NCBI RefSeq assembly: GCF_001427785.1
Contig: NZ_LMHM01000017.1
Location: 164-64,163, forward strand
Direction: 5' to 3'
Length of the DNA: 64,000 bases
Origin: Lysobacter sp. Root690
GTDB taxonomy: Bacteria; Pseudomonadota; Gammaproteobacteria; Xanthomonadales; Xanthomonadaceae
The position numbers and the translations under genes are program-made. Below, in pieces: positions 17,399 through 26,512 of this stretch. Within the stretch, counting starts at the first letter, position 1; each line of letters opens with the position of its first letter. The notes beneath the pieces were generated by a model, which worked only from the letters and a program-made list of their open reading frames with translations, was not told the DNA's origin and searched no databases.

Positions 17399-17664
17399 GC
17401 GCTCAGCTCCGCCGGCCGGGGATGCCGACAGCTACCCCATTAAGGCACGAAAGATGGGTAAGTGGTTGCTTGGCTTGGCTTTGCGACATCGGTACGGGAC
17501 GGCTTTGCGGTCTTGGGCGTATTGTTAGCGTTCGGTTAATAGCCGCGCTATAGTGCATACGGCGTCGTACGTCGGGAGGGGTTTCCGGCGGCATGGAGCT
17601 CGCAATTGCGGTTCCGCGCACACGGCCAGGAAAGACTAAAAATACTCCAACGGAGACTACACGC

Positions 17665-19038
17665 ATGCAACCCTCACACCGCTACACCCGCCTGACCGCG
17701 ATCGCGCTCGGCATCGCTGGCGTCATCAGCTTCGGTTCGGCCGGCGCTACCGGTTTCCAGATTCGCGAGAACAGCGTCAAGAACCAGGGCCGTGCTTTCG
17801 CCGGCAGCGCGACCGGCCAGGACGACGCCTCGGTCGTGTCGAACAACCCGGCTGCGATGGTCAATCTCGACACCACCACCATCCGCACCGACGTCACCCT
17901 GATCGACCTGACCGCGAAGTTCAAAGGCGGCGGACGTAGCGGCGCGGGCACCCCACTGACCGGCGGCAACGGCGGCGACCCGGGCGACGCTACCCCGGTG
18001 CCGGCGATGTCGATCGTCGTGCCGTTGCACGGCGCGTTCGAGAAGCTCACCCTCGGCGCGCAGCTCAGCGCTCCGTTCGGCCTGAAGACCGAATACGACA
18101 GCACCTGGGTCGGCCGCTACAACGCGATCGAGTCGGAAGTGAAGACCATCGACCTGACCTTGTCGGCCGCGGTGAAGATCACCGACCGCTTCTCGGTCGG
18201 CGCCGGCTTCGTCTACGAGCGCGCGGAAGCGACGCTGACCAACGCCGTCGACTTCGGCTCGGGCATCTGCGCCAATCCGCAGACCCGTCCGCTGTGCCTG
18301 ACCCCGAATCCGACTGCCGCCGCGTTCGGCCCGCAGAAGAACGACGGCCTGGCCAAGGTCAAGGGCGACGACACCGGTATCGGCTGGATCCTCGGCTTCC
18401 AGTGGAAGCCGACCGACGCGCTGTCGATCGGCTATTCGCACCGCTCGGAAATCGACCATGACCTGGCTGGCAACATCACGTTCACCAAGCCGGGCAACGT
18501 CGCGGCCGTGTTCGCGGCCGGTGGCGTCACCACCTACAACAACGGTCCCGGCGGCGCCGCGCTCACCACGCCGAGCACCGATACGGTCAGCGTGACGTAT
18601 GCGTTCAACGACCAGTTCCGCATGATGTTCGACGCGCAGCAGACCGATTGGCATTCGCTGCAGTCGGTGGACATCAAGCGCGCCAACGGCAACCTGATCA
18701 CCAGCGAGAAGTTCGAGTGGGACGACACGATGATGTACGCACTCGGCGCCGAGTACGACTTCAGCGATTCGTTCACCCTGCGCGGCGGCGTGGCCAAGGA
18801 TGAGTCGCCGACCAACGACACCCACCGCACCCCGCGTCTGCCCGACAACGACCGCATGCTGTACTCGGTCGGTCTGACCTGGAACGCGAACGAGCACCTG
18901 AGCGTCGACGCGGCGTATACCCGCATCACCATCGACAGCCCGGACGTGGACGTGGTGTCCTCGAGCAGCTCGACCCTGGTCGGCAAGTTCAAGGGCCACG
19001 CCGATCTGTTCGGTATCGCCGCTCAGTACAAGTTCTGA
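17665..19038 (+). CDS. FadL/OmpP1-family outer-membrane transport protein
   Basis: A 457-residue beta-barrel with a signal peptide (LTAIALGIAGVISFGSAGA). The mature protein starts TGFQIRENSVKNQGRAFAGS, and the typical FadL hatch SNNPAAMVNLD follows. Alternating beta-strands end in a C-terminal aromatic (QYKF). FadL proteins bring long-chain fatty acids and other hydrophobic molecules across the outer membrane. The ATG at 17665 has CGGAGAC a few bases upstream. The frame opens earlier at 17593, but that part is not a signal sequence. A terminator follows directly. Confidence 0.92.
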   Translation: MQPSHRYTRLTAIALGIAGVISFGSAGATGFQIRENSVKNQGRAFAGSATGQDDASVVSNNPAAMVNLDTTTIRTDVTLIDLTAKFKGGGRSGAGTPLTGGNGGDPGDATPVPAMSIVVPLHGAFEKLTLGAQLSAPFGLKTEYDSTWVGRYNAIESEVKTIDLTLSAAVKITDRFSVGAGFVYERAEATLTNAVDFGSGICANPQTRPLCLTPNPTAAAFGPQKNDGLAKVKGDDTGIGWILGFQWKPTDALSIGYSHRSEIDHDLAGNITFTKPGNVAAVFAAGGVTTYNNGPGGAALTTPSTDTVSVTYAFNDQFRMMFDAQQTDWHSLQSVDIKRANGNLITSEKFEWDDTMMYALGAEYDFSDSFTLRGGVAKDESPTNDTHRTPRLPDNDRMLYSVGLTWNANEHLSVDAAYTRITIDSPDVDVVSSSSSTLVGKFKGHADLFGIAAQYKF

Positions 19039-19060
19039 TCCAACGCCGCATCGCTGCACG

Positions 19061-19089
19061 AAAAACCCCGCCTCGGCGGGGTTTTTTTT
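19061..19089 (+). terminator. Rho-independent terminator of the fadL-like gene
   Basis: A 7-bp stem CCCCGCC / GGCGGGG with loop TC is followed by eight T. A run of A on the left makes it partly bidirectional, so it could also serve the convergent flc operon. Confidence 0.92.
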
Positions 19090-19125
19090 GCCCGCGACCG
19101 GCTGATCGCCGTCCCGCGTTTCGGC

Positions 19126-20199
19126 TCAGGGCCGCAGTTCGAACAACGCCGGCAACGGCGGCCGATCGGAAGGCACCTTGCGTACGCGGCTGAAGCCGGC
19201 CTTGGCGGCCATGTCGCGCGCGCGGGTTTCGCCCATGAAGGCGCCGAGCCCGGCGCCGCCGTGCGACAACGAACAGGTCATGCAGTACAGCGTGCTCTGC
19301 GGGTACATCACCCGGCCGAACAGATTCATGTTTTCGTGCAGTTCCTCGGACAGGTTGAGCTCGACCATGAGGTAAGTCCCGTCGTCGGCGGTCGAGGTGC
19401 GCAGGTCCTTCATCATCTGCTGAGGATCGGCCGCGTCGTGGATCACCACGAAAGTGGTCACGAAGTCGAACTTCTTGCCCAGCAGCGCATCGGAATCGGC
19501 GACCTCGAAACGCACTCGATCGCCGAGTCCGGCCGCATCCGCGTTCGCGCGCGCGCGCTTGATCGAGGGCAGATGGAAATCGCAGCCCAGGATGCTGGCG
19601 TTCGGAAACGCCTGGGCCATGGTGATCGCGGCCAGCCCGCTGCCGCAGCCGAAATCGAGCACGCTGCCGCCAGCTTCGAGCTTTTCCTTGACCCCGGTCA
19701 GCGACGGGATCCAATGCTGGACGAGGAAGTGCTTGTACCAGGGCATGGTCATGCGCTCCATGCCCTGCCAGGTTTCGACCGGATAGGATTCTTCCGGCGC
19801 ACCGCCGCCATGACGGAACGCCTCGATGATCCGCGGCGCCATCGACACGAACGGAACGCTCAGCTGGATGATGCCGCCGGCGAAGTAGGGCGAGTCCTCG
19901 TCGGCCAGCACCGGGACGAATTCGTCGGGCAGGCGATAGCGCTTGCTGTGGCGGTCGTAGCTCACGTAGTCGCCGGTCGCCATGCTGCCGAGCCACTCGC
20001 GCAGATAGCGCGCGTTGAGCCCGGTGTGATCGGTGAGTTCCTCCAGCGTCACCGCGCCGGTCTGGGCCAGAGCCTTGAACAGGCCCAACTGGTCGCCGAT
20101 GTAGAGCATGGCGCCGCGCAGCGTATTGCCGTAATCCTCCATGATGCGCGCGGAAAACTGCTGGACCTTGGCCGGATCGGCTTCGATGCTCACTGACAT
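19126..20199 (-). CDS. flcA: SAM-dependent methyltransferase, putative FlcA of a fluopsin-like pathway
   Basis: This 357-residue protein has an N-terminal winged-helix region (about 25-95, GAMLYIGDQLGLFKAL...LTDHTGLNARYLREWL) and a class I methyltransferase domain with motif I VLDFGCGSGLAA at about 180-191. The start at 20199 follows an AAAGGA site. It is the last gene of a five-gene operon that matches the fluopsin C enzyme set: two lyases, two iron enzymes and one methyltransferase. In that pathway the methyltransferase adds the N-methyl group of the thiohydroxamate. The assignment rests mainly on this context. Similar methyltransferases occur in other roles. Confidence 0.75.
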   Translation of the reverse strand: MSVSIEADPAKVQQFSARIMEDYGNTLRGAMLYIGDQLGLFKALAQTGAVTLEELTDHTGLNARYLREWLGSMATGDYVSYDRHSKRYRLPDEFVPVLADEDSPYFAGGIIQLSVPFVSMAPRIIEAFRHGGGAPEESYPVETWQGMERMTMPWYKHFLVQHWIPSLTGVKEKLEAGGSVLDFGCGSGLAAITMAQAFPNASILGCDFHLPSIKRARANADAAGLGDRVRFEVADSDALLGKKFDFVTTFVVIHDAADPQQMMKDLRTSTADDGTYLMVELNLSEELHENMNLFGRVMYPQSTLYCMTCSLSHGGAGLGAFMGETRARDMAAKAGFSRVRKVPSDRPPLPALFELRP

Positions 20200-20266
20200 T
20201 CCTTTCTCCCGATGAGTTATGCGGCGTGTGTTCGCGCGGATCATTCGCGCTGATGAATCCAGTGCT

Positions 20267-21724
20267 TCAGAAACGACGGTTGCCGACCTGAGTCAGTACG
20301 TCGTCGACGATGGTCTCGGCCATTCCCAGATGCGCCCTGGGTTCGAACAGGCGCGCGAGCTTTCCCTCGTCGACGGCGGCGAGCACCCGCGGATCGCACT
20401 CGACCGCCTCGCGGATCGAGACCCGGTCGCGCTGACAGGCCTGGGTGAGTTCGAAGATGATTTCGTAGGCGCTGCTTTTGCCGAGCGTCTTGGCCATCTC
20501 GAACACGAACGCCTCCATGCAGATCGCGTCGCCGTAAGCGTGCGCGTTGCGATCCATCGCCGCGTCGTTGACGGTGAGCTTGCCGATCGTGTCGCTGAGC
20601 AAGGCCAGCGCGGTCAGCGCGTAGTGGGAGACATCGGCGACCGCGCACCACTCCAGGCGGGTGCCGCGGTAGTCGCGTTCGTGCTCCAGGATCATCGCGT
20701 CCAATGCGAGAACGACCTGCGCCTTGGCCAGGCGGGCCATCACCACGACCTGCTCGCAGCCTTCCGGATTGCGCTTGTGCGGCATCGTGCTGCTGCCGAT
20801 CTGCTGCTCCGACCAGCCGACTTCGACCTCGGCGATCTCCCAGCGGTTCAAGGTGCGGATTTCGTCGGCCACCCGCGCCAACGACGCGGTCATCATCGCC
20901 AGCGCGCTGACGAATTCGGCGACGCGGTCGCGCGCCACATGCCAGCCGGCGTGCGGCACGCCGAGGCACAGCCGGCGCGCGAACACGTTCAGCAGCGCCA
21001 TGGCGTCGGGTCCGAACGCGGCCATCGTGCCGACTCCGCCGAACAACTGCACCACGAGCACGCGCTGGCGCGCCTGTCCGAGGCGATCGCGATGGCGCAA
21101 CAACTCATCGATCCAGCCGGCCACTTTCAAACCGAAGGTCGTGGGCAAGGCCGGTATCGAGTGGGTTCTGGCGACCATCAGCGAGCCGCGGTGCGCGTTC
21201 GCCAGCGCAGCGAGCTGCGCGATCAAGCCATCGAGCGCGACGTCGACGCTGTCGAGCACGTCGCGCATCTCCAGCGACTGCGCGGTGTCCTGGATGTCCT
21301 GGGTGGTCGCGCCGTAGTGAACGTACTCGCGCGCGCTCGGACTGCAGTTGTCCTGCAGCGCGCGCAGCAGCGGCATCAACGAGTGCCCGGTCTTGCTCAC
21401 GCCGTCGGCGATCTGGTCCAGATTCATCGCCGACAATTTCGCGCTGCGCTGGATTTCCAGCGCGGCCTGCAGCGGGATCATGTGGACTTCCGCCTGCGCC
21501 ATCGCCAGCACCGATTCGACGTCGAGCCAGCGCTGCAGCCGACATCGGCCGCAGAAGATCGCCCGGCTCGCGGAACCGGCGTAGCCGCCGCCATGCACCT
21601 TCGAATCCAGAATGTGGCTGTGTTCGTGCCGGCAGTCGTCGATCACCGCCGGCTCGCTCACCGAGCAACCGCGGCGCGCGGCGAACGCAGGATGCGGCGT
21701 CACTTTCAAGGTCTGTGGTTCCAT
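20267..21724 (-). CDS. flcB: Aspartase/fumarase-superfamily lyase, putative FlcB
   Basis: This 485-residue protein belongs to the adenylosuccinate-lyase branch of the superfamily. It has HYGATTQD at about 136-143, MVARTHSIPALPTTFG at about 183-198 and the signature GSSTMPHKRNP at about 310-320 (catalytic Ser loop). It carries an N-terminal extension of about 40 residues with several Cys and His absent from its paralogue. It is not the housekeeping PurB, given its pairing with a second lyase and two diiron enzymes. In the fluopsin C pathway one lyase joins cysteine to fumarate and the other releases fumarate at the end. Which is which here is assigned by gene order. It starts 58 bases after the flcC stop. 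Confidence 0.77.
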   Translation of the reverse strand: MEPQTLKVTPHPAFAARRGCSVSEPAVIDDCRHEHSHILDSKVHGGGYAGSASRAIFCGRCRLQRWLDVESVLAMAQAEVHMIPLQAALEIQRSAKLSAMNLDQIADGVSKTGHSLMPLLRALQDNCSPSAREYVHYGATTQDIQDTAQSLEMRDVLDSVDVALDGLIAQLAALANAHRGSLMVARTHSIPALPTTFGLKVAGWIDELLRHRDRLGQARQRVLVVQLFGGVGTMAAFGPDAMALLNVFARRLCLGVPHAGWHVARDRVAEFVSALAMMTASLARVADEIRTLNRWEIAEVEVGWSEQQIGSSTMPHKRNPEGCEQVVVMARLAKAQVVLALDAMILEHERDYRGTRLEWCAVADVSHYALTALALLSDTIGKLTVNDAAMDRNAHAYGDAICMEAFVFEMAKTLGKSSAYEIIFELTQACQRDRVSIREAVECDPRVLAAVDEGKLARLFEPRAHLGMAETIVDDVLTQVGNRRF

Positions 21725-21782
21725 CGCATACCCTCCATCCAAGAATGGGCTGACTGGAAACTCGTTTGATGATGTCGCCCGC

Positions 21783-23153
21783 TCAGGATCGGCCGCGCAG
21801 ATGGCCGGTCGCGTCGCGCGCGACCCGGTCGACCATCTCCACGGCCAGTCCCGCATAGGTGACCGGATCGAGCAGATCTTCGAGCGCCTGAGGCGTGAAG
21901 CTGCCACGCAGGCGCTCGTCCTTGAGCAAGGCGTCGCGGAACGGAACATCGTGCCGTCGCGCCTCCATCGATATTTCATGCACCAGTTCGTGCGCGGTCT
22001 GCTTGCCGAAGCGACCGCCAAGCGCGAGCATCACGCGCTCGGACAGAATCAACCCGCCGAGCAAGTCGAGGTTGTCGCGCATGCGCTGTTCGCGCACGTC
22101 CAGGCCCGCCGCCAACATCTCGTCCATGCGCGCGAGCAACGCGCCGGTGTAGACGAACAACTCGGGCAGGGCGGCCCATTCGATCCGCCAGGCCGTGCCG
22201 TCGCGTTCGTGCAGGTGAAACGCGGCATCGGTGAGCGCGACCATCTGCGCCCGGATCAGCCGCGACAACGCGCTGATCAGATCGGCGGTCGACGGATTCT
22301 GCTTGTGCGGCATGGTGCTGCTGCCGATCTTGCCGGGCGCGGTTCCTTCGCGGACCTCGTCGACTTCGGTCCGCTGCAGGTGATAGATCTCGTTGGCGAT
22401 CCGCCCCATCGTGACCGCGCACTGGACCAGCAATCCGCCCACCTCCAGGATCCGATCGCGCACCGAATGCCAACTGGTGCGCGGAGCATCGAGCCCGAGG
22501 CTGGCCAAGGTGCGTCGCTGGACCTCGAACCCCTGCGCGCCGAACGAGGCCATGGTGCCGACCGCGCCGGTGAGGTTGCCCACCATCACCCGCGCACGCG
22601 CCTCGTCGAAACGCTGCAGATGCCGATCGATCTCGTCGACCCAGACCGCGACCTTGTAACCGAAGGTGGTTGGCAACGCGTGCTGGCCGTGGGTGCGCGC
22701 GACCATCGGCGTGCGCCGGTGCTTGCGCGCCAACGCGAGCAGCTGGGTCTGGATCGAACGCAGCCGCGCGAGCACGAGGTCCCAGGCTTCGGCGACCTGC
22801 AGCATCAGTCCGGTGTCGAGGATGTCCTGGGTGGTCACGCCGTAGTGAACGTACTCGCCCCATCCGTTCTGGCAGCGCTCGGCCAGCGCCCAGATCGTCG
22901 GAATCAGGATGTGCCCGGTTTCGCGGCTCTCGCGGCCGAGCCGTTCGAGATCGAACAACTCCACATGAGTGCGGCGCGCGATTTCCTGCGCGGCCTCATG
23001 CGGGATCAGGCCCATCTGCGCCTGCGTCGACGCGAGCGCGCGCTCGACATCGAGCCATTTCTGCAGCTGATTGCAATCGGAGAAGATCGCGGCGAACTCC
23101 GGATCGGAGTAAACGCCGCCATGGATGCGCGATTCGCTGACGTGGCTCGGCAT
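21783..23153 (-). CDS. flcC: Aspartase/fumarase-superfamily lyase, putative FlcC
   Basis: A second adenylosuccinate-lyase-like enzyme of about 456 residues with HYGVTTQD, MVARTHGQHALPTTFG and GSSTMPHKQNP, the superfamily signature. It is collinear with FlcB over most of its length but clearly diverged, so the two are paralogues with separate steps. An in-frame GTG at 23198 overlaps the flcD stop as GTGA and would add 15 residues. The ATG at 23153 is chosen because the family-like sequence starts there. Its proposed role is releasing fumarate from the oxidised S-succinyl intermediate (inference from the Pseudomonas pathway). Confidence 0.77.
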   Translation of the reverse strand: MPSHVSESRIHGGVYSDPEFAAIFSDCNQLQKWLDVERALASTQAQMGLIPHEAAQEIARRTHVELFDLERLGRESRETGHILIPTIWALAERCQNGWGEYVHYGVTTQDILDTGLMLQVAEAWDLVLARLRSIQTQLLALARKHRRTPMVARTHGQHALPTTFGYKVAVWVDEIDRHLQRFDEARARVMVGNLTGAVGTMASFGAQGFEVQRRTLASLGLDAPRTSWHSVRDRILEVGGLLVQCAVTMGRIANEIYHLQRTEVDEVREGTAPGKIGSSTMPHKQNPSTADLISALSRLIRAQMVALTDAAFHLHERDGTAWRIEWAALPELFVYTGALLARMDEMLAAGLDVREQRMRDNLDLLGGLILSERVMLALGGRFGKQTAHELVHEISMEARRHDVPFRDALLKDERLRGSFTPQALEDLLDPVTYAGLAVEMVDRVARDATGHLRGRS

Positions 23154-23194
23154 GCTGGCTGATCCGGTGGCTTGGCTGGCGGGCGAAAGGACGG

Positions 23195-24184
23195 TCACTG
23201 CACGCTCTGCATTTCGTCCCAGACCGCGTCGTAGTACGCCCGCTCGACCCGGAAGTGCTGCGCCAGCGAAGTCAGGAACGATTTCTGGAACGCCGGATCG
23301 GCGATGCGTCGCGAGATCAGCTGCCACTCGCGCTTGGCGCGCGGCGGCACCAGGCTGACGTGGATCTTGTAGTACTCGGCGGCGTCCTCGCTGAGGCCGG
23401 CCTGGAGCAGCGCGTTGTAGAGCTTCTCGTGATTGCCCGGCACGACGATTTCGGTGATGTAGAACACCGCCAGGCCCCAGCCCACGTCCGGGTTGCGGAA
23501 GCTGCGCACGCGATTGTTCAAGTACGCGATTTCCTCGGGCATCGTGCTGACGGCCTGGAAGTCCGCGTCCAGATCGACGGCATCGAGCAACTTGGCCAGC
23601 AGCCGCGGGTGCGAGCGCACTTCGTCCTCTTCGCCCAGTTCTCCGTGCAGATAGCGGCCGAGCGCCGCCGCGTCGTCCACGTCGACCAGGTTCACCAGCA
23701 GATCCGCGGCCTCGCGGTACAGGCGGAAGGTGCGGAACCACTGCCGGTGCAGGAACACCCGCAGCTGCGCCGGCGAAGCGGAGCCTTCGAAGATGTACTG
23801 CGACATCGGGTGCTTCTCGCGCGAGCGCGACGACACCTCTTGTTCTATGCGCGCCAGGAACTCGGCTTCCGACAAGGCCGTGGGCACTTCAGCGGCGGGA
23901 ATGAAACGTTCCTCTACCCGATACGCCCAGTTGCACAGCCAGCGACGCGCGAGCGCGGTGGCGGTGTCGTCGCTGAGCGACAGGATGTACAGCAGTTTCT
24001 GGTACTCGGCATGGCTGTCGCTGTTGCCGTTGAGCGCGGTTTCGGCCAGTTCGGACAAGGTCTTGGCCGCCGTTTCCAGATGGGCGAACGAGGCCTTGGG
24101 TTCCAGCGCGCGGGCGAGGATGCGCGCGCGGTTGGTCTGAAGGGCTTCGAGCTGTGGCAGGGAATGATTGCGAGTGTTCGACAT
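23195..24184 (-). CDS. flcD: Heme-oxygenase-like diiron oxidase, putative FlcD
   Basis: This 329-residue protein is all-helical with the TenA/HDO pattern. Candidate iron ligands are the Glu and His of HGELGEEDEVRSHPRLL, the Glu of FYITEIVVPGNH and the His of YYKIHVSLVPP. Such non-heme diiron enzymes carry out N-oxygenation, decarboxylation and carbon excision. In fluopsin C biosynthesis one of the two removes a methylene from the cysteine-derived oxime. It is paralogous to the gene upstream. The shared patterns include KHPMSxxxFxG, the NNRxRxxR block and WGLxxxY. Spacing to flcE is 36 bases. Confidence 0.77.
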   Translation of the reverse strand: MSNTRNHSLPQLEALQTNRARILARALEPKASFAHLETAAKTLSELAETALNGNSDSHAEYQKLLYILSLSDDTATALARRWLCNWAYRVEERFIPAAEVPTALSEAEFLARIEQEVSSRSREKHPMSQYIFEGSASPAQLRVFLHRQWFRTFRLYREAADLLVNLVDVDDAAALGRYLHGELGEEDEVRSHPRLLAKLLDAVDLDADFQAVSTMPEEIAYLNNRVRSFRNPDVGWGLAVFYITEIVVPGNHEKLYNALLQAGLSEDAAEYYKIHVSLVPPRAKREWQLISRRIADPAFQKSFLTSLAQHFRVERAYYDAVWDEMQSVQ

Positions 24185-24220
24185 GCGCGCTCCTTGGCAG
24201 GCACGGTGAGGAATCGGGGC

Positions 24221-25240
24221 TTAGTGGATGTGCTGTCCCTGCATCTGTCGCCACAACATGTCGAAATAGGCCCGATTGATGTCGAAGTGACGCGTCAGCG
24301 ATTGCATGAAGGTGCGCTGGAACGATTCGCTGTGAGCGAACTTGGCGATGAGTTCCCACATCTCCTCGGTGTCGATCTCGTCCTGCGTTCCATGCAGGCG
24401 ATGGAATTCGCTCGGCCCGTCGGGAACGCCCATGCGCTGCAGCAGTTCGTAGATCCGCAGGTGGTTGACGCAGCTGACCGATTCGACCGCGTACACCAGC
24501 GACAATCCCCAGGCCACGTCGGTGTGGCGAACGCAGCGGATGCGGTTGTTGAGGTAGGCCTTTTCCAGCGGATCGAGCGCGGCGAAGTCGACCCGCAGCG
24601 GGATGTCGAAATACGCCATCAGCCGCGCCAGCAAGGTCGGATGCGCGTTGTCGGGCGTCTCCGCGCCGGCTTCGCCGTAGAGGTTGCGATAGAAAACGGA
24701 AGCGTCGTGGATGGCCTCGAACCGGAACGCGAGTTCGGCCAGCAGGCTGTAGAAGTTGTACGAGCGGTTCCAGTGATGCTGCAGGAACAGGCGCACGTCG
24801 CGCAGCGGCGGCGTGCCCTGGAACAGGTGCAGCGACATCGGGTGTTTGACCCGCGTGCGCGAGGCGATCTCGGCATCGACCTTGGCGCGGAACTGATCCA
24901 CCGGCACGACCTGGAAGTCCGCGAGCGCCGGCGCGAACCGGTCTTCGACCTGATAGATCTGGCTCGCCAGCCAGCGCCGGGTCGGTTCGGTGCGTGGCTC
25001 GCCGGGAACGTGCAGGTCGAGCAGGATGGATTGGTACTGCGCATACGCGGTCGCATCGCCCTCGAGTCCCTTCTGGGTGAGCGCGAGCAAGGCGTCGGCC
25101 GCGAGCGCGGTCCGCGAACTGGCCGCTCCGGGCTTCAGCGCTTCGGCCAGCAGGATCGATGCGTCGGCCGACGCCGGCGTGGCGTGGCCGGAAGGAGTTT
25201 TTGCGTGCTGCGTATCGCGAAACGTGCTGGTCTCGTTCAT
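24221..25240 (-). CDS. flcE: Heme-oxygenase-like diiron oxidase, putative FlcE
   Basis: This 339-residue paralogue of FlcD and first enzyme gene of the operon starts at the ATG at 25240, behind a GGGGA site. Candidate ligands are Glu in NLYGEAGAE, His in DNAHPTLLARL, Glu in VYAVESVSCVNH and His in FHRLHGTQDE. Core blocks match FlcD (KHPMSLHLFQG, LNNRIRCVRHTDVAWGLSLVY). In the Pseudomonas pathway one HDO decarboxylates and N-hydroxylates an S-succinyl-cysteine to an aldoxime. The assignment to that step is by gene order. The open frame extends to 25339, but the extra residues are Arg-rich and unlike the family. Confidence 0.77.
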   Translation of the reverse strand: MNETSTFRDTQHAKTPSGHATPASADASILLAEALKPGAASSRTALAADALLALTQKGLEGDATAYAQYQSILLDLHVPGEPRTEPTRRWLASQIYQVEDRFAPALADFQVVPVDQFRAKVDAEIASRTRVKHPMSLHLFQGTPPLRDVRLFLQHHWNRSYNFYSLLAELAFRFEAIHDASVFYRNLYGEAGAETPDNAHPTLLARLMAYFDIPLRVDFAALDPLEKAYLNNRIRCVRHTDVAWGLSLVYAVESVSCVNHLRIYELLQRMGVPDGPSEFHRLHGTQDEIDTEEMWELIAKFAHSESFQRTFMQSLTRHFDINRAYFDMLWRQMQGQHIH

Positions 25241-25456
25241 GAGTGTCCCCGTTTGCTGGCGAATGGCCGCTGGCTGTGAATGAACGGCGCGCAGGCGCAC
25301 GCGCCGCGATCGACTCGCGACCATGGTGTTTGTTGGCAATCAAGAACCCCGGATGCCGCGCCGCGCTCGGCGGCCCGTCAGGCTGCGCGGATAGCTTCGC
25401 TATGCGCGGCCGCTGCGCTTACCGGGATAGTCCCCATACATCGCTGGAGCTAGGTT
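25241..25456. other. Gap between the YHS gene and flcE
   Basis: This 216-base stretch has no gene. It holds GC-rich palindromes, including GCGGATAGC-TTC-GCTATGCGC (about 25387-25408). By eye I find no second copy of the MerR-type operator seen at 26156, so the flc genes may be read from the regulator promoter or from an unrecognised promoter here. Confidence 0.4.
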
Positions 25457-25714
25457 TCAGCGCGCCGCCGATGCCTGCGCGTTGGAATCGGCGAACGTTT
25501 GGCGGCAATGCGCCGAACAAAAGTAGTGTTCGACACCGGCCAGGGCGAGGCGATGCGGCGTTGCGGCCGGGTCCACCTGCATGCCGCAGACAGGATCGAT
25601 GCTGGTTGCCGTTGCAGCGGCGGTGCTGGCGCAGGTTCGCGCGGCGGAGCAGCAGTCGCGCGGGACGTCTTCGACGTTGTCGGATGGCTTGTCCGATGCC
25701 TGTGTATCGCTCAT
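25457..25714 (-). CDS. Small YHS-domain metal-binding protein
   Basis: 85 residues. The C-terminal half is a YHS domain (DPVCGMQVDP...GVEHYFCSAHCRQTF), the module found at the N-terminus of copper P-type ATPases and in stand-alone metal carriers. The N-terminal half has extra Cys residues (RDCCSAARTC). It starts inside the MerR gene's stop (ATGA) with GGAGGGG upstream, so the two are translationally coupled. It lies directly upstream of the flc operon on the same strand. A role in binding or handing over copper for this locus is inferred. Confidence 0.85.
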   Translation of the reverse strand: MSDTQASDKPSDNVEDVPRDCCSAARTCASTAAATATSIDPVCGMQVDPAATPHRLALAGVEHYFCSAHCRQTFADSNAQASAAR

Positions 25715-26109
25715 GTTTCATCCCCTCCCAGGGCGTTGAGAATCGGGCAGCGCTCCACCGCTCCGTGCCCGGGGCACGAATTGAGCAGGATCCGCAGTCC
25801 GTTGCGTATACGTGTGAGTTCGTCGATCTTGGATTCCAGGTCGGCCAGCTTCTGGGTCGTGGTCGCCTTGACCCCGGCCATGTCGCCGCCGCGCCGGCTG
25901 GACAGGGCGAGCAGTTCGCGGATTTCCTCCAGGGTGAATCCGAGCGCCTTGGCCTTGCGCACGAACTGCAGCCGGGCGATGTCCTTCGCCTCGAAACGCC
26001 GATAGCCCGACAATTGGCGCATCGGCAGCGGCAACAAACCCCGGCGTTCGTAATAGCGCACCGTGTCGATACCCACCCCAGCGCGCTGCGCGAGCTCCCC
26101 AATCTTCAT
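25711..26109 (-). CDS. MerR-family metal-responsive transcription regulator
   Basis: This 132-residue protein has a winged helix-turn-helix (IGELAQRAGVGIDTVRYYER), a long dimerisation helix and a metal loop with Cys112 and Cys121 (CPGHGAVERC). The C-x8-C spacing resembles mercury/zinc sensors more than the C-x7-C of CueR. At the position that is Ser77 in CueR and Cys in divalent sensors, this protein has Met77 (GGDMAGVK). It probably represses and, with metal, activates its own promoter by DNA distortion. Adjacent YHS and flc genes suggest copper as the signal. The metal is not settled by sequence. Confidence 0.9.
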   Translation of the reverse strand: MKIGELAQRAGVGIDTVRYYERRGLLPLPMRQLSGYRRFEAKDIARLQFVRKAKALGFTLEEIRELLALSSRRGGDMAGVKATTTQKLADLESKIDELTRIRNGLRILLNSCPGHGAVERCPILNALGGDET

Positions 26110-26146
26110 TGCGCACCTCCATGTTCACAGTGGCGGGTATTGGAAC

Positions 26147-26178
26147 AGTGTTCGGTCTGGACCATGGTCCAGAGTCAA
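26147..26178 (-). promoter_or_regulatory. MerR-type promoter and operator
   Basis: Read on the minus strand, -35 TTGACT (26178-26173) and -10 AACACT (26152-26147) are separated by 20 bases, the over-long spacer typical of MerR-regulated promoters. The perfect 18-base palindrome TCTGGACCATGGTCCAGA (26156-26173) lies in that spacer, its distal end overlapping the -35 by one base. Transcription would start near 26140, about 30 bases before the regulator's ATG. Confidence 0.88.
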
Positions 26179-26512
26179 GCCTTTTTGCGACCGACTTCCA
26201 GCAACGTTGACCGAGTTCTCACAGTCGACGTCCGTGGACGATGCGCCGGAAGGCCGGGCCCGGGCCGACCGCATCCGCGTTCGAGCGGGCGCGCCTCGTG
26301 ATTGAGGTCCCGGTTCGTTCATCCGGGCATCGCCATGGGCGGGAAGGCGTGCGCAACGCGGACGAGTGCCTTTCGCCTGGCCGCGGTTGGCTTGAAGCGG
26401 CATGACCTCGCGCAGGTGCGAGAATGGCGGCGTAGACCACGCCGGCTCGCGCGAGGCCATCGTTGCGATGCGGACCTTGTCCGGGGCCGCGCTGGTCACG
26501 ACATCGCCGGTC

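What the first reader, a model, noticed from the sequence alone, without database searches (positions are those of the whole stretch)
19126..26178. Complete fluopsin C-type (copper-thiohydroxamate) biosynthesis locus in a xanthomonad, with its own metal regulator
Seen: one-strand operon of two heme-oxygenase-like diiron enzymes, two aspartase/fumarase-superfamily lyases and a methyltransferase, preceded by a YHS metal-binding protein and a MerR regulator. Known: in Pseudomonas aeruginosa exactly two lyases, two iron enzymes and one methyltransferase convert cysteine to the thiohydroxamate of fluopsin C under copper stress. Inferred: this locus makes the same or a closely related metal-binding antibiotic, in the same A-to-E order but with a different local regulator and a YHS partner. 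This is the best candidate for an undescribed system in the window.
Basis: partly seen in the sequence, partly recalled or inferred. Interest (0 to 1): 0.92.

Follow-up and report, generated by a model that had tools for sequence, protein, structure and literature searches.

The report
Copper-antibiotic genes under a pump's switch

Summary
On the minus strand lie merR, yhs, flcE, flcD, flcC, flcB and flcA. FlcD is 72% identical to the crystallised P. aeruginosa enzyme and keeps all 15 residues checked. All five enzymes match eight Pseudomonas flc loci at 68-83%, in the same order. One detail fails: FlcD carries the mononuclear-iron motif E-H-E-H-V-R, so "two diiron enzymes" is wrong.

What is new is the regulatory head. 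In 13 of 14 inspected flc-free loci of the family (or genus), the same MerR with the same operator precedes a copper-type P1B-1 ATPase whose N-terminus is the same YHS domain. Here the pump body is gone and flcEDCBA follows. In 5 of the 8 flc-bearing genomes of the genus, MerR and YHS are one fused protein. The genome keeps a separate CueR-CopA pair. The module (19122-26184) sits at two different sites in the genus, and both sites are found empty in other genomes.

Most likely: a copper-induced fluopsin C operon under a switch captured from a copper-export operon. Copper induction, co-transcription of merR-yhs with flc, and the product are inferred, not shown. The enzymes are a known kind; the captured regulator makes this a new variant.

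The parts
26147..26178 (-). MerR-type promoter of merR: TTGACT (26173-26178), 20-base spacer, AACACT (26147-26152)
   Evidence: Position; conserved in 8 of 8 flc loci and, as TTGAC[TC]CTGGAC, in 14 of 14 MerR loci outside flc. The assignment of the two hexamers is by eye. The sigma-70 scan with 16-18 base spacers finds no promoter here, as expected for a 20-base spacer.
26156..26173 (.). Perfect 18-base palindromic operator TCTGGACCATGGTCCAGA
   Evidence: exact core only once in the window (the other match has 3 mismatches); the 25-base operator pattern has 1 match in the own genome at up to 3 mismatches
25711..26109 (-). merR: MerR-family metalloregulator, 132 aa, with Met where CueR has Ser77 and C-x8-C in the metal loop
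   Evidence: below the CueR, ZntR and MerR equivalog cut-offs; alignment with 7 other flc MerRs, 12 MerRs outside flc and canonical CueRs
25457..25714 (-). yhs: 85-aa YHS-domain protein, homologous to the N-terminus of YHS-type copper ATPases; ATGA overlap with merR
   Evidence: PF04945; 57% over 54 residues to residues 21-72 of a CopA of the family; the DxxC...CxxxC residues named in PMC4626032 are present; fused to MerR in 5 of 8 flc loci
24221..25240 (-). flcE: haem-oxygenase-like oxidase; [quoted passage not shown]
   Evidence: 73-77% to eight Pseudomonas FlcE; role from PMC11363339
23195..24184 (-). flcD: haem-oxygenase-like mononuclear-iron dioxygenase; by homology methine excision
   Evidence: 72% (234 of 326) to P. 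aeruginosa FlcD; 15 of 15 residues checked, motif E-H-E-H-V-R
21783..23153 (-). flcC: aspartase/fumarase-superfamily lyase; by position and homology C-S cleavage releasing fumarate
   Evidence: 75-78% to eight Pseudomonas homologues; GSSTMPHK[QH]NP in 16 of 16 sequences
20267..21724 (-). flcB: aspartase/fumarase-superfamily lyase; by position and homology adds cysteine to fumarate
   Evidence: 78-80% to eight Pseudomonas homologues; GSSTMPHKRNP in 16 of 16 sequences
19126..20199 (-). flcA: SAM-dependent N-methyltransferase
   Evidence: 80-83% to eight Pseudomonas homologues; methyltransferase and Rv2258c-like winged-helix domains
19056..19091 (.). Likely two-way terminator between flcA and the convergent fadL (17-base arms, 2-base loop, A and T runs)
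   Evidence: Inverted repeat, 88% complementary; function inferred
19122..26184 (-). Whole transferred module: operator, merR, yhs, flcEDCBA
   Evidence: Extent of DNA homology between window and the five subgroup-B loci (74-80% identity; one or more pieces per locus), with unrelated flanks

Best explanation
This is a fluopsin C (copper N-methyl-thiohydroxamate) operon whose switch was taken from a copper-export operon. MerR sits on the palindrome in front of its own gene. When cytosolic Cu(I) rises it binds the two C-terminal cysteines of MerR, the long-spaced promoter is untwisted, and merR-yhs-flcEDCBA is transcribed. The YHS protein, once the N-terminal metal-binding domain of the pump, probably binds copper next to the regulator and hands it over or buffers it; in five relatives it is part of the regulator itself. 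FlcB joins cysteine to fumarate, FlcE and FlcD remove carbons 1 and 2, FlcC releases fumarate and FlcA N-methylates; two product molecules chelate one copper. So the signal that makes relatives pump copper out makes this strain turn copper into an antibiotic, while its separate CueR-CopA pair keeps the export duty. Shown by sequence: the gene set, catalytic residues, shared operator, regulator clade, YHS homology to CopA, two insertion sites. Inferred: copper as signal, co-transcription, the role of YHS, the product.
For: FlcD 72% to the solved enzyme with 15 of 15 residues named in PMC11363339. All five enzymes at 68-83% and in the same order in eight Pseudomonas loci. MerR homologues in 65 of 198 family genomes at E <= 1e-40. 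Of 14 MerR loci outside flc that were inspected, 13 are followed by a YHS-bearing ATPase (11 of 12; 2 of 2). 11 of 11 of these ATPases checked carry CPC, YNxxxxP and MxxSS, the P1B-1 copper signature (recalled). Operator TTGAC[TC]CTGGAC in 8 of 8 flc and 14 of 14 other loci. flc MerRs form one clade (100/98), on the side of the pump MerRs and apart from CueR. MerR-YHS fused in 5 of 8 flc loci. The own CueR-CopA pair has a different box, TTGACCTTACCATCATGGGAACC. The YHS-ATPase type is present in 5 of 20 genus genomes, none with flc; the 8 flc genomes have only the 45-48% type. A YHS domain confers copper activation on a mycobacterial cyclase (PMC4626032, passages). In P. aeruginosa PA3515-3519 answer to Cu(I) through CueR (PMC7922089, passages).
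Against: No expression or metabolite data. 216 bases lie between yhs and flcE (243-414 bases in three of the five fused loci), so one transcript is not assured; only one operator per flc locus was found, and no sigma-70-like promoter in 25200-26250. The metal is inferred from the relatives' pump; the C-x8-C spacing and operator half-sites recall zinc or mercury regulators as much as CueR (recalled), and MerR scores below the cut-off of CueR, ZntR and MerR models alike. One of 14 loci (L075) lacks the ATPase. No exporter lies in the module, unlike 6 of 8 Pseudomonas loci. YHS-MerR packing was not resolved: AlphaFold2 of the fused protein gave mean pLDDT 55. The midpoint-drawn tree leaves the branching among pump MerRs open.
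Confidence: 0.75

Rival explanations
1. Fluopsin enzymes as above, but merR-yhs is only a passive neighbour: a broken copper-ATPase operon next to which flc landed, with flc expressed from its own promoter.
For: A 216-base gap between yhs and flcE, and the pump body lost.
Against: merR, operator and yhs are intact in 8 of 8 loci and move with flc to a second site; fusion in 5 of 8 keeps both domains; no other operator and no sigma-70-like promoter was found in the gap.
Confidence: 0.15
2. Same enzymes, but the regulator answers another metal (Zn, Ag, Hg), so the thiohydroxamate is made for another metal or as a general detoxifying chelator.
For: NCBIfam gives MerR, CueR and ZntR nearly equal sub-threshold scores, 118.5, 116.4 and 114-116.3 bits. 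The operator half-sites resemble ZntR's (recalled).
Against: The homologous regulators precede P1B-1, copper-signature ATPases; the Cys that divalent-metal sensors carry (recalled) is Met in all 8 flc and 12 of 12 pump MerRs aligned.
Confidence: 0.15
3. A related but different thiohydroxamate is made (other acyl or N-substituent).
For: Product identity cannot be read from sequence; window enzymes are 68-83% to Pseudomonas ones.
Against: All residues that bind the substrate in FlcD are conserved; no extra tailoring gene in the module.
Confidence: 0.1

Closest known systems
Fluopsin C biosynthesis operon flcA-E of Pseudomonas aeruginosa (PA3515-PA3519; gene-by-gene naming recalled)
   Same: Five homologous enzymes in the same order; FlcD 72% with all checked residues.
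   Different: P. aeruginosa uses the distant CueR (PA4778) and 7 of 8 other Pseudomonas loci have a CueR-type box within 320 bases of flcE; here a local MerR-YHS head with another operator. No efflux pump gene in the module.
MerR - YHS-type copper P1B-ATPase operons of Xanthomonadaceae (loci L065-L074, L076, L106, L107)
   Same: MerR clade, operator, overlapping reading-frame arrangement, YHS domain.
   Different: The ATPase after the YHS domain is absent and flcEDCBA takes its place.
CueR-CopA of the same genome (C16)
   Same: MerR-family copper regulator beside a copper ATPase.
   Different: CueR with Ser at the position where the flc MerR has Met, CopA with HMA domains and no YHS motif, box TTGACCTTACC.
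YHS-domain copper-sensor module of Mycobacterium phlei adenylyl cyclase (PMC4626032)
   Same: YHS domain with DxxC...CxxxC attached to a signalling protein.
   Different: There on a cyclase, here beside or fused to a MerR regulator; copper response here untested.

Membership tests
Fluopsin C (flcA-E) pathway | Five enzymes: two lyases, two HDO-fold oxidases, one methyltransferase in one operon | tested here: met
Fluopsin C (flcA-E) pathway | FlcD-specific E-H-E-H-V-R motif and substrate residues | tested here: met
   15 of 15 residues, in the window and in 15 of 15 homologues; the paper predicts the motif strongly in 1 of 150 HDO groups only
Fluopsin C (flcA-E) pathway | FlcE orthologue with its metal motif | tested here: inconclusive
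   73-77% to Pseudomonas FlcE and identical at the compared columns, but the sixth ligand column is Asp, not His, in all; no P. aeruginosa FlcE sequence was at hand
Fluopsin C (flcA-E) pathway | Catalytic serine loop in both lyases | tested here: met
   GSSTMPHKRNP in FlcB 16 of 16; GSSTMPHK[QH]NP in FlcC 16 of 16
Fluopsin C (flcA-E) pathway | Copper-induced production of the Cu-thiohydroxamate | not testable with these tools
   Needs culture and mass spectrometry
Fluopsin C (flcA-E) pathway | CueR-type box before flcE, as in Pseudomonas (not enzymatically defining) | tested here: not met
   Pseudomonas 7 of 8 within 320 bases; no TTGACCTT seen in the printed yhs-flcE gap of the window
CueR equivalog (TIGR02044) | Score above curated cut-off | tested here: not met
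   116.4 bits against 147.4
MerR-YHS-CopA operon | MerR clade and operator | tested here: met
MerR-YHS-CopA operon | P1B-1 ATPase after YHS | tested here: not met
   tblastn of pump proteins finds only the YHS part in the 8 flc loci; other hits have E above 0.1 (alignments printed for 3 of 11 queries)

The most novel reading that the evidence does not exclude
A copper-detoxification switch was rewired from defence to attack: the operator, MerR and the severed copper-binding head of an export pump were captured by the fluopsin genes, fused in one lineage into a two-domain MerR-YHS copper sensor, and moved as one self-regulated 7-kb module to two chromosomal sites within the genus.
Probability: 0.5. 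Interest if true: 0.68.

Novelty: new variant of a known kind. Interest (0 to 1): 0.55.

Why it matters
It puts a copper-based antibiotic pathway in a genus known for biocontrol. Lysobacter capsici AZ78 is copper-resistant and is combined with copper fungicides (PMC4742617, passages); whether that strain carries flc was not tested. It also shows how one stress signal can be switched from export to weapon by swapping what follows a regulator, and it offers a natural MerR-YHS fusion for testing what YHS domains do with copper. The Pseudomonas and Lysobacter loci appear to have reached copper control by different regulators, which makes the copper link directly testable.

Tried and rejected
Considered and rejected: chance neighbours (the seven genes recur in 8 of 20 genus genomes); both oxidases diiron; merR-yhs specific to flc (one search shows the regulator in 65 of 198 family genomes, most without flc); a plasmid-borne locus (no FlcD match in 72,556 plasmid records).

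Led nowhere: AlphaFold2 of the MerR-YHS fusion (mean pLDDT 55.4); Rfam and tRNA scans of the window (no match); a conserved hairpin before flcE was looked for by eye in a poor alignment and is not claimed.

Errors mended: six of eight outgroup regulators were read on the wrong strand and its tree is discarded; one search replaces it. In one search the flcE start picked for window, L028 and L029 is an in-frame ATG 84 bases upstream of the one I use. One search printed no gap for L031 because its regular expression missed it; its fusion is.

Distribution searches: FlcD strong match in 8 of 20 genus genomes (two further genomes only at E about 1e-6), 7 of 297 family genomes, all in the genus, own only of 398 phylum genomes, own only of 369 class genomes, 8 of 348 Pseudomonas genomes, including the two already known. 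The collection pattern scan confirmed 3 loci of 39 candidate stretches.

Literature: 'fluopsin' with 'Lysobacter' gave 0 papers; 'YHS domain' with 'MerR' and 'copper' 0; 'flcA' with 'fluopsin' 1. The founding paper (Patteson 2021) is not held, so I cannot say whether it already lists Lysobacter.
Full report
Observation. The window's minus strand carries merR, yhs, flcE, flcD, flcC, flcB and flcA between 26109 and 19126, with the expected Pfam domains. merR and yhs overlap by ATGA; 216 bases separate yhs and flcE. A perfect 18-base palindrome lies before merR, and a strong inverted repeat with A and T runs lies between flcA and the convergent fadL.

Enzymes. FlcD is 72% identical (234 of 326) to P. 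aeruginosa FlcD of known structure. All 15 residues named for metal, substrate or activity in PMC11363339 (abstract, introduction, structure section, motif section and passages seen) are present in the window and in 15 of 15 homologues. FlcE has Asp at the column of the sixth ligand in the window and in 15 of 15 homologues; I leave its cofactor open. Both lyases keep the GSSxMPxKxNP loop in 16 of 16 sequences each. The assignment of FlcB and FlcC, and of FlcA-E to PA3515-PA3519 one by one, rests on position and recall; no P. aeruginosa sequence other than FlcD was at hand. Roles of FlcB, E, D, C and A are taken from PMC11363339.

Relatives. The window's genome is of the same genus as Lysobacter sp. 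yr284 (genome G017; its flc stretch matches locus L006 exactly over the 10 kb compared). 8 of 20 genus genomes, own included, have the flcD-flcE pair, and all 8 have merR, yhs and flcEDCBA in the same order. Beyond the genus FlcD is rare: 7 of 297 family genomes, all in this genus, own only in 398 phylum and 369 class genomes, 8 of 348 Pseudomonas genomes. In the eight Pseudomonas loci inspected, the five genes stand in the same order at 68-83% identity to the window. A relative of the RND-pump genes found beside flc in L007 lies upstream in 6 of 8, and no YHS motif or MerR-YHS operator was found in any of the 8. In 7 of 8 a CueR-type box TTGACCTTGCCA lies within 320 bases of flcE. PMC7922089 and PMC12833586 (passages) say that CueR activates PA3515-3519; the MexPQ promoter printed in the latter begins TTGACCTTGCCA too.

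Origin of the switch. MerR relatives at E <= 1e-40 occur in 65 of 198 family genomes. I inspected 12 of these loci (three of the genus, nine best or near-best of the rest) and two more of the genus found through the ATPase. In 13 of 14 the regulator is followed by a P1B-type ATPase whose N-terminus holds the YHS domain; the exception is L075. The 11 such ATPases of the first set all carry CPC, YNxxxxP, MxxSS and CPMHP. The promoter motif TTGAC[TC]CTGGAC precedes MerR in 14 of 14 of these and in 8 of 8 flc loci, once per flc locus. The window's YHS protein aligns with the pump N-terminus (57% over 54 residues); no pump remnant beyond it was seen in the flc loci (rows of 3 of 11 queries printed). 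flc MerRs are one clade (100/98) on the pump-MerR side of the tree and apart from canonical CueR. In 5 of 8 flc genomes MerR and YHS are one open frame of 212-217 codons; in the other 3 they overlap as separate genes, as merR and the pump gene do in relatives. The own genome has a separate CueR-CopA pair with HMA domains and another box. The YHS-ATPase occurs in 5 of 20 genus genomes, none with flc; the 8 flc genomes have only the 45-48% type.

Movement. DNA homology between window and subgroup-B loci spans 26184 to 19122, with unrelated flanks. Three genomes carry the module between fadL and a MOSC gene, five between a GGDEF-EAL gene and the TIGR02449-zapA pair. The first site is empty, with fadL and MOSC 58-186 bases apart by alignment ends, in 8 of the other 17 genomes; in 2 more MOSC is about 1.2 kb away and in 7 it was not seen within the 1.5-kb flank. 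The second site is empty in 15 of 15 other genomes, own included. FlcD was not found on plasmids. The unrooted FastTree of the concatenated enzymes groups the Lysobacter set next to L007 and L008 among the Pseudomonas sequences, which fits transfer from Pseudomonas but has no outgroup.

Mechanism. I infer that Cu(I) is the signal because the regulator, operator and YHS domain come from copper-ATPase operons, because Met replaces the Cys of divalent sensors (recalled) in 20 of 20 such MerRs aligned, because a YHS domain gave copper activation in a mycobacterial cyclase (PMC4626032, passages), and because the product binds copper. Against it: sub-threshold scores to all metal-specific MerR models, the gap before flcE, and no measurement. 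The position of copper on YHS and its hand-over to MerR is a guess; structure prediction did not resolve it.

Verdict. The biosynthetic locus is a new member of a known kind in a new lineage; its captured, in part fused, regulator makes it a new variant. The library holds no paper with both 'fluopsin' and 'Lysobacter', but the founding fluopsin paper is not in it.

Noticed in passing
G003 fadL locus L122 against the window's fadL (17593-19038): fadL next to the module is only 75-76% identical between window and G003, although the neighbouring rhomboid gene is 100% and flc about 95%: fadL may have been replaced by recombination in one of them.
   Followed up: no
L120, L121 (genomes G002, G001): The fadL reading frame carries one in-frame TAG in both genomes.
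   Followed up: no
L072, L074: Copper ATPases with two tandem YHS domains at the N-terminus.
   Followed up: no
L007, L008, L077 (Pseudomonas): A copper P-type ATPase and RND pump genes lie upstream of flcE, so copper export and fluopsin genes are linked there as well, by another arrangement.
   Followed up: partly
L077 (G834): About 2.1 kb separate the ATPase match from flcE, and no CueR-type box was found within 320 bases of flcE, unlike the other seven Pseudomonas loci.
   Followed up: no
L075 (G095): The MerR with the same operator stands without YHS or ATPase behind it; what it controls was not examined.
   Followed up: no
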